From a bacterium (GTDB taxonomy: Bacteria; Myxococcota_A; UBA796; GCA-2862545), in the NCBI GenBank assembly GCA_030424555.1, contig JAUHWK010000002.1:1-35142 (forward strand): DNA of 35,142 nt, written 5' to 3'. Position 1 is the first letter of the stretch; every line of letters starts with the position of its first letter. A program made the translations under genes and the position numbers. The notes under the pieces are model-generated. The model did not search any database and was not told the origin of the DNA. It saw only the letters and a list, made by a program, of their open reading frames with translations. This document shows, one piece after another, positions 28,901-31,900 of the stretch.

Positions 28901-31900
28901 CCGCCTCGCCCACGGTGATCGCGGCGGTGGCGGTGGCGCAGTTGTCGCTGTTGAGCTTCTCGCACACCTCGTAGACGACGTCGTACGTCCCCGACGCAGT
29001 GCCTGGCGGCACGGTCAGGGTGCCGTCCGCGCCGATCGTCACGCCGGTCAGGCCATCGGCGTCCTCGACCGAGGTCGTCACGTCGAAGGGATCGACCACC
29101 ACGCCGCTGAGGGTGTCGTTGGCGAGCACGTTCACCGCCGCGCCACCCAGGGCGCCGGAGTCCACGTCGCCCGCGTCGTCGACGGCGACCAGGCTCGCCG
29201 CACCCACGGTGAGGGAGACGGTGGCGTCGTCGCAGTTGTCGGTGCCGTTGAGGGCCTCGCACAGGCGGTAGGTCAGGGCGTACACGCCCGCAGGGGTGCC
29301 CGCGGGCACCACGATCCCGCCGGCCGCAGACAGGGTGGCCCCGGTCAGGCCGTCGAGCGCAGTGAGGGTGAGGTCGACGTCGGCCACCAAGGCCGGAGCG
29401 CCGCCGAGGGTGTCGTTGGACAGCACCGACGCGGTGGTCCCTCCGACCGCGCCATCCGACACCACGCGGGTGTCGTCGTTGGCGACCAGGTTGGCCGCCC
29501 CGACCGTCACGACGAAGGTCGCCGTGGCGCAGTTGCCGGGGTTGAGGTTCTCACAGACCTCGTAGACCACGTCGTAGGTGCCGGCCGGGGTCGCCGCCGG
29601 GACGGTGATGCCACCCGAGGCACCGATCGCCACGCCCGCCAGGCCGCCGTCCTGATCGATCGACAAGGTCACGCGGGAGGGCGTGATCGCCAGACCGCCG
29701 AGGCGATCGTTGGGGAGGGCGTTGCCCGCCGAGCCCCCGGCCCGTCCGCTCGCCACCGTGCCCGTGTCGTCCACGAGGGCGAACACCGCAGCCTCGACGT
29801 CCACGGCCACGTCGGCCTCATCGCAGTTGGTCGGGTTGAGGACCTCGCACAGGCGGTAGCGGACCGTGTACGCACCGGCCGGCGTGTTGGCCGGGATGGA
29901 CAGGGCACCCGCCGCCGAGATCGTCGACGCCGGCAGATCGCCCGTGCCGAGCACGGTGGCCGTCACGTCGGCTGCGTCCACCAGCGCACTGTCGAGCAGG
30001 TCGTTGGCGAGCACGTTGGTCGCCACGCCGCCCACCGCACCGTTGGACACGGTGCCCGCGTCGTCGATCGCGTCGATCGGGGCGTCGGAGACCGTGACCG
30101 AGACGTCGGCCTCGTCGCAGTTGGACGTGCCGTTGAGCGCCTCGCACAGGCGGTAGCGGATGGTGTACACGCCCGAGGCCACCCCGGCGGGGAGGACCAG
30201 ATCGCCGTTGGGTGCGATCGAGGCTCCGGTGGGGTTGGGGGCGACGATCGACAGCGTCACGTCGCCGGGGGCCGGCTGCACGCCGTCCAGTTCGTCGTTG
30301 GTCAGGACGTTGACCGCCGTGCCGCCGGACGCACCCGACGCGATCGTGCCAGTGTCCGCCACCGCGTCGATCGAGGCCGCGCCGACGTCGACCTCGACGA
30401 TGGCCGTGTCGCAGTTGGACGGGTTGAGGTCCTCACACAGCTGGTAGACGACGTTGTACAGGCCCGCCGGGGTGTCGGCCGGCACGACCAGGTCGCCCGT
30501 CGCCGAGATCGACGCGCCCGGGAGAACGGCCGGGTTGGTGATGGCAGCCGTCACGTCCGCCGCATCCACCGCCACACCGTCAAGCGTGTCGTTCGCCAGA
30601 ACGTTGACCGCCGTGCCGCCCGCCGCACCCGACGCGATCGTGCCGCTGTCGTCCACGGCGGAGATCGTTCCCGAGCCCACCATGACGTCGACGTCGGCGG
30701 TGTCGCAGTTGGTCGGGTTGAGCGTCTCACACACCGAGTAGGTGATCGTGTAGGACCCCGCGGCCACGCCACCGGGGAACACGAGGTTGCCGCTCGGGTC
30801 CAGGGTGGCGCCCGTGCTGGAGGGATCCCCACCCGTCGGGATGGACAGGGTCACGCGTGCTGCGAGCACCGCGCTGCCGTCGAGCGTGTCGTTGAGCAGG
30901 ACGTTCACGACGCCGGGGGCCGGCTGCACGCCGTCCAGTTCGTCGTTGGTCAGGACGTTGACCGCCGTGCCGCCCGCCGCACCACTGCCGATGGTGCCGA
31001 CGTCATCGGCCGCGAGGAGCTCCGCGTCCTCGACCGTGACCGTGACCTCGGCCCCGTCACAGTTGCTGGTGCCGTTGAGGTCCTCGCACAGCGAGTACGC
31101 GACCACGTACACGCCCGACGCGACGCCCGGCGGGAGGACGAGGTTGCCCGACGCGTCGATCGACGCCCCCGTCGGGTTGGCGCCGGTCACGGTGGCCGTG
31201 ACGTCCGCGGCGTCCACGGCCACGCCGTCGAGCGTGTCGTTGAGCAGGACGTTGACGGCCGTGCCGCCCGCCGCACCGCTGGACACGGTCCCGCTGTCGT
31301 CGGCCGCGACGATGGCGGCGCCCGACACCGTGACGGTGGCCTCGGCCGTGTCGCAGTTGCCGGCGTTGAGGTCCTCACACAAGGTGTACTGGATGACGTA
31401 CACGCCGTTCGCCACGCCGCCCGGCAGGACCAGGTTGCCCGACCCGTCGATCGACGCGCCCGTGGGGTTGGCGCCGGACACCGAGGCGGTGACATCCGCC
31501 GCGTCGACGGCCACGCCGTCCAACGTGTCGTTGGTGAGGACGTTGACGGCCGTGCCGCCCGCCGCACCCGACGCGATCGCGCCGGTGTCGTCCACCGCCG
31601 CGATCAGGGCGTTGGAGACGGTGACCGTGATCTCCGCGACGTCGCAGTTCGTGTCGCTGTTGAGCGTCTCGCACAGCTCGTACTCGAGCGTGTACACGCC
31701 CGAGGGCACGCCGGGCGGGAACACCACGTCGCCGTTGGTCGCCAGCGTGGCGCCGGTACCGGCGTCCTCGAACAGCTCGCCCTCGACGTCGGCCGGATCC
31801 ACGGCCACGCCGTCGAGCGTGTCGTTGGCGAAGGCGTTCACGGCCGTGCCGCCCGCCGCACCCGACGCGATCGTGCCGGTGTCGTCGACCACGACCAGCG

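What the first reader, a model, noticed from the sequence alone, without database searches (positions are those of the whole stretch)
30654..31007. Chimeric unit 7 created by an in-frame internal insertion
Unit 7 is 118 residues while its neighbours are about 97. The surplus is mostly an 18-residue stretch that restarts the unit, and its DNA is part of a 64-bp exact copy of sequence in unit 9, 648 bp away. This is a frozen recombination event that kept the frame, showing the array is still changing.
Basis: seen in the sequence. Interest (0 to 1): 0.6.

Follow-up and report, generated by a model that had tools for sequence, protein, structure and literature searches.

The report
Patchwork repeat unit in giant protein
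One domain in a giant, probably surface-exposed bacterial protein built of about 29 repeated domains carries an extra 18 amino acids that appear to have been copied from another repeat of the same gene: a clear but ordinary trace of recombination between repeats.

Summary
On the minus strand, unit 7 (31022-30669 by my boundaries) has 118 residues; U2-U6 and U8-U14 have 97-99. An 18-codon stretch (30965-30912) restarts the unit inside a 64-bp exact copy (30974-30911) of unit 9 (30326-30263), 648 bp away: the longest exact repeat in the gene, reached in 0 of 400 permutations. The two internal copies are only 32/54 alike; copy 1 equals unit 9 (54/54), copy 2 is nearest unit 6 (44/54), so plain tandem duplication fails. 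Best reading: a short patch copied from unit 9, entered in register and left out of register, giving one cadherin-like domain surplus loop residues. Direction and single-step mechanism are inferred. "The array is still changing" is not shown: this is the only exact tract clearly beyond chance among 27 diverged units. Related arrays (Flavobacterium, Tenacibaculum, Rhizobium MAG) have longer tracts, at whole-unit spacing. By length, no comparable unit occurred in 136 spacings of nine related loci (one long spacing there spans other domains). No reads or other strain were available; the window is one contig of a 715-contig assembly, so artefact is unlikely, not excluded. Known kind of event; low interest.

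The parts
22917..35141 (-). giant repeat-protein gene, 4074 codons, 5' end cut by the contig edge; TSP3 repeats, about 29 Ig/cadherin-like units, a Big_9 domain after the array, D/T-rich linkers, C-tail with Cys, hydrophobic stretch and Arg run
30669..31022 (-). unit 7, 118 residues, chimeric
30911..30974 (-). 64-bp tract identical to unit 9
30912..30965 (-). copy 1: 18 surplus codons ([18 protein letters not shown]), 54/54 to unit 9
30858..30911 (-). copy 2: [18 protein letters not shown], nearest unit 6 (44/54); out-of-register joint at about 30911
30263..30326 (-). matching tract in unit 9 (30374-30081), in register there: probable donor
31023..31316 (-). unit 6, nearest relative of unit 7 before the tract (35/48 in the codon alignment; best BLAST match of that stretch in the gene) and at copy 2

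Best explanation
Unit 7 is one of about 29 cadherin/Ig-like units of a giant, probably surface-exposed protein. A unit whose start resembled unit 6 received a short patch (at most 64 bp) copied from unit 9. The copying entered in register, inside sequence common to several units (GGCGGCACGGCGGTCAACGT), and returned one strand-and-loop too early, so the A'-strand/ND-loop segment is now present twice (54 nt surplus, frame kept). Shown: the mosaic, the identity to unit 9, its improbability by chance, the rarity of such long units in related arrays. Inferred: direction (unit 9 to unit 7), a single event by template switching or gene conversion with a slipped exit, and tolerance of the surplus residues as a longer loop.
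For: U7-U9 identity is 57/57 in the aligned tract against 28/48 before and 114/186 after it; 64/64 by exact match; 0 of 400 permutations reach it. The tract fits unit 9's register throughout but breaks unit 7's register at its 3' end, which gives the direction. The stretch before the tract and copy 2 are both nearest unit 6, as expected if one unit was interrupted. The 300-nt flanks of the two tracts are not duplicated (U7 vs U9: 209/297 upstream, 157/237 downstream), so a recent unequal crossover carrying whole units is not the source of the tract. AlphaFold2 of unit 7 alone, with RVTLSI aligned as strand B, keeps a confident core, with the lowest confidence at about residues 31-50; that model matches cadherin domains at TM about 0.5-0.58.
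Against: No strain, read or outgroup shows unit 7 without the surplus. Exit microhomology cannot be read because the ancestral sequence is unknown. Beyond copy 2 the rest of unit 7 is not nearest unit 6 (after the tract: U9 114/186, U8 113/189, U5 108/186, U6 107/186; best BLAST pieces of the part from 30910 on lie in U24 and U1), so the 'one unit-6-like backbone' argument is weak. The other AlphaFold2 job (U6-U8, other gap placement) used copy 2 as strand B and left 144-166 without confident structure, so the structural consequence depends on the alignment given.
Confidence: 0.57

Rival explanations
1. Two steps with a deletion: an ordinary unit was converted in register from unit 9, then an out-of-register deletion of about 240 nt fused it to the next unit. 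Unit 7 is then two units fused, not one unit enlarged.
For: Gives the same letters; long exact tracts at whole-unit spacing (up to 183 bp) occur in related arrays. The part of unit 7 after copy 2 is not nearest the same unit as the part before the tract.
Against: Needs two events; the stretch before the tract and copy 2 are both nearest U6, which a fusion of two units does not predict.
Confidence: 0.18
2. Two steps with a duplication: the 54-nt segment first duplicated in tandem inside unit 7, then the first copy was overwritten from unit 9.
For: The copies are adjacent at exactly 18 codons and share AACGTCCTG at the same place; the converted stretch would naturally end where pairing with unit 9 breaks, at the joint.
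Against: Needs two events; the copies are only 32/54 alike, within the range of copy 1 against other units (23-38/54), so duplication alone fails and no trace of it is left.
Confidence: 0.15
3. Assembly artefact: a short-read assembler joined units wrongly at the 64-bp repeat.
For: Fragmented 715-contig assembly, 86% complete. [quoted passage not shown] Reads and assembler are unknown to me.
Against: A false walk through the repeat would continue into unit 9; here the sequence goes on with other unit-7 sequence at a joint where the first base already differs from unit 9, so two wrong joints would be needed, the second without a long shared word.
Confidence: 0.1

Closest known systems
Intragenic recombination in tandem-domain bacterial surface proteins, e.g. 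Periscope Proteins (PMC8201768, passages)
   Same: Long arrays of folded domains in a probable surface protein; recombination between repeats inside one gene.
   Different: Periscope arrays have repeats of high identity and vary by whole repeats; here units are diverged (means 0.61 and 0.48) and the change is a sub-domain, out-of-register patch.
Duplication of several domains at a time in repeat proteins (Expansion of Protein Domain Repeats, PMC1553488, passages)
   Same: Growth of a domain array by internal copying.
   Different: Those events add whole domains; here 18 residues were added inside one.
Template switching / microhomology-mediated break-induced replication (PMC2621351, search listing and start of abstract; the mechanism otherwise recalled)
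   Same: Short stretch copied from nearby sequence, with at least one joint of low homology.
   Different: Proposed there for human copy number variation; the exit homology cannot be measured here.
Related arrays of the same unit type in three Pseudoxanthomonas, an Arenimonas MAG, a Rhizobium MAG, two Flavobacterium and one Tenacibaculum genome (nine loci)
   Same: Same unit profile; 4 to 32 units in nine reading frames (a tenth frame has one).
   Different: By length, no unit like U7 in 136 spacings; the Flavobacterium, Tenacibaculum and Rhizobium arrays share exact tracts up to 183, 167 and 84 bp at whole-unit spacings.

Membership tests
Ectopic (intragenic) gene conversion tract | identity of a tract far above that of its flanks, beyond chance | tested here: met
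   64/64 in the tract; flanks 70% and 66%; 0 of 400 permutations
Ectopic (intragenic) gene conversion tract | replacement without change of length (feature recalled) | tested here: not met
   54 nt surplus, 3' joint out of register. It works like conversion but is better called a templated insertion
Plain tandem duplication | two adjacent copies alike | tested here: not met
   32/54 between copies, in the range of copy 1 against other units (23-38/54)
Periscope Proteins | repeats of high sequence identity | tested here: not met
   mean protein identity 0.61 within U4-U9, 0.48 over the remaining pairs; highest pair U5-U6 0.77 (unit 7 with copy 2 set aside)
Periscope Proteins | repeat number varies between strains | not testable with these tools
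   no other genome of the genus appeared; no match in 70 other genomes of the class at E 1e-8
Periscope Proteins | N-terminal ligand-binding domain | not testable with these tools
   the N-terminus is cut by the contig edge
Bacterial Ig / cadherin-like repeat (Big_9, Cadherin_4, Cadherin_5) | Pfam match of the array units | tested here: not met
   U6, U7, U8, U9 and U16 scanned alone (5 of 29 units): no match to these families up to E 1; the best whole-protein stretches lie after the array, residues 3835-3929
Bacterial Ig / cadherin-like repeat (Big_9, Cadherin_4, Cadherin_5) | cadherin-like fold | tested here: met
   predicted models only: unit 7 alone vs protocadherin domains E 3.9e-4, TM about 0.5-0.58; U6-U8 vs cadherin EC chains E about 1e-13 but TM only 0.25-0.43 over three domains

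The most novel reading that the evidence does not exclude
Diverged, otherwise quiet domain arrays may gain new surface loops by short out-of-register patches copied from distant units, a route to loop diversity that leaves the unit number unchanged; unit 7 would be a caught example.
Probability: 0.1. Interest if true: 0.45.

Novelty: new member of a known kind. Interest (0 to 1): 0.25.

Why it matters
It is a clean example of sub-domain copying between diverged repeats that kept the reading frame, and a caution that unit length alone does not give the register in such arrays. It does not change how repeat proteins are thought to evolve.

Tried and rejected
Tandem duplication inside unit 7: rejected as sole cause, copies 32/54. 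Recent unequal crossover duplicating whole units: rejected, the flanks of the two tracts are 70% and 66% identical. Ongoing homogenisation of this array: not supported; runs of 36, 34 and 32 bp lie within the permutation range. Relatives: no match in 57 other genomes of the family and order (E 1e-3, 245-residue query), in 70 others of the class (E 1e-8) or in 376 others drawn from the phylum (E 1e-6; only 13 candidates per genome scored in the rows shown, so less complete). These three sets overlap and do not add up. PDB sequence search with 23 units: 0 matches at E 0.1. Pseudoxanthomonas L051 vs L054 as a stability control: equal unit number (32), but only 21 of 32 best matches at the same index, so it does not show a frozen order. 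Literature: five searches; no title or abstract start that I saw there described an out-of-register sub-domain patch in such an array; I read passages of three papers only and claim no absence in print.

Rows left out: profile A2 used 23 units (without U1, U7, U25, U27, U28, U29); A4 used 24 (without U1, U15, U27, U28, U29); A1 used all 25 consecutive triples of U2-U28; the tests used U2-U28 (27). In one search outliers were spacings 8 or more residues from the median of their frame; the second L053 frame (one unit) gave no spacing; L056 and L057 are contigs of one genome.

Full report
What is there. A minus-strand frame of 4074 codons runs from the contig edge (35141) to 22917, so its N-terminus is missing. 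It carries TSP3 repeats, about 29 units of some 98 residues with a Cys pair, a Big_9 domain after them, acidic linkers and a C-terminal tail of Cys, hydrophobic stretch and arginines. The tail resembles surface-sorting tags such as MYXO-CTERM (recalled; no NCBIfam match to such a tag up to E 0.01), so surface exposure is inferred.

The observation. Unit 7 (31022-30669) has 118 residues; U2-U6 and U8-U14 have 97-99. The segment [18 protein letters not shown] is followed at once by a second start, [18 protein letters not shown]. The first lies in a 64-bp exact copy of unit 9, 648 bp further along the gene, the longest exact repeat of the gene. Among U2-U28, copy 1 is 54/54 to U9 and at most 38/54 to any other; copy 2 is best to U6 (44/54; next 38); the two copies are 32/54 alike.

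Chance. Same-residue codons are identical between units in 10,730 of 16,710 cases (64%); for the 21 codons of the tract the chance of full codon identity is about 3e-5, assuming independent positions. Permuting codon columns and taking the maximum over all 351 pairs of 27 units never reached the observed run (0 of 400; permuted maximum 54, with copy 2 set aside for the alignment; 0 of 300 with the whole unit). The next-longest run, 36 bp, was equalled in 26 of 400, so U7-U9 is the only clear exact tract in this array. No difference in 64 nt puts a one-sided 95% limit of about 4.6% on divergence since the copying (my own calculation): recent beside the divergence of the units, but not shown to be within a species.

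Direction and mechanism. In U9 the tract is in register from end to end. In U7 it enters in register, in sequence shared by several units, and ends at the out-of-register joint (first differing base at 30910). Unit 7 before the tract is nearest U6 (35/48, where six units were compared; best BLAST match in the gene) and so is copy 2, which fits one interrupted unit. Against this, the rest of unit 7 after copy 2 is not nearest U6. The 300-nt flanks of the two tracts are 70% and 66% identical, so whole units were not recently duplicated along with it. The simplest history is one short templated patch with a slipped exit. Conversion plus a deletion of about 240 nt, or duplication plus conversion, remain possible because no outgroup is at hand.

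Comparison. The unit family was not found in 57 other genomes of family and order, 70 others of the class or 376 others drawn from the phylum (fewer candidates scored); the sets overlap. It was found in nine loci from Pseudoxanthomonas, Arenimonas, a Rhizobium MAG, Flavobacterium and Tenacibaculum (a scan for two short patterns, so more may exist). Over 11 reading frames, 167 Cys spacings (28 and 3 in the two window genes, 136 in the nine loci) gave three outliers of 8 or more residues: U7 (119), U29 of the same gene (156, acidic linker) and one Rhizobium spacing (315; the translation shows other domains between). Exact tracts longer than 64 bp occur in the more uniform arrays (up to 183 bp Flavobacterium, 167 bp Tenacibaculum, 84 bp Rhizobium); among the eight longest shown for each, the distances are whole numbers of units except one that is off by 6 nt. 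So a 64-bp tract as such is ordinary; the out-of-register joint is the unusual part.

Structure. Two AlphaFold2 jobs gave a cadherin-like sandwich. Foldseek of unit 7 alone lists protocadherins and cadherins first (best E 3.9e-4, TM about 0.5-0.58; Rib domains further down); the U6-U8 model matches cadherin EC chains at E about 1e-13, TM 0.25-0.43 over three domains. Units scanned alone have no Big_9 or cadherin match in Pfam (5 of 29 units). With U6-U8 and the gap placed late, copy 2 becomes strand B and residues 144-166, after it, have pLDDT below 50. With U7 alone and the native RVTLSI aligned to strand B, the core is confident and residues about 31-50, between A' and B, are weakest (block means 58 and 50). 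In both the surplus is loop, but which loop, and which copy forms the strand, is unsettled, because the result follows the alignment given.

Artefact. A wrong assembly at the 64-bp repeat should run on into unit 9; instead other sequence follows, so two wrong joints would be needed. A 64-bp repeat can exceed the k-mer of some assemblers (PMC6868369, passages), so only reads can exclude it.

Verdict. Observation confirmed; recombination reading supported; 'still changing' not shown. A clear member of a known kind of event.

Noticed in passing
24476-24009: Unit 29 carries an acidic DT/DS linker of some 50-60 residues inside the domain (Cys spacing 156), with 24-bp DNA repeats at 24186-24308.
   Followed up: partly
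19073-22855 (-): Neighbouring frame with FG-GAP repeats, TSP3-like repeats (below Pfam's cut-off), four units of the same family and a similar C-tail: a paralogous protein next door.
   Followed up: partly
L051, L054: Two Pseudoxanthomonas genomes hold 32-unit arrays; exact repeats at 1134-bp spacing (about four units) recur, and 11 of 32 best matches between the two arrays lie at another index: perhaps a higher-order period.
   Followed up: partly
L055, L056: Flavobacterium and Tenacibaculum arrays of the same unit share long exact tracts, unlike the diverged array here, and the family looks patchy among bacteria.
   Followed up: no
30833-30816: Unit 7 also has 2-3 extra residues in a second loop (GGDPSS), outside the unit-9 tract.
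   Followed up: no
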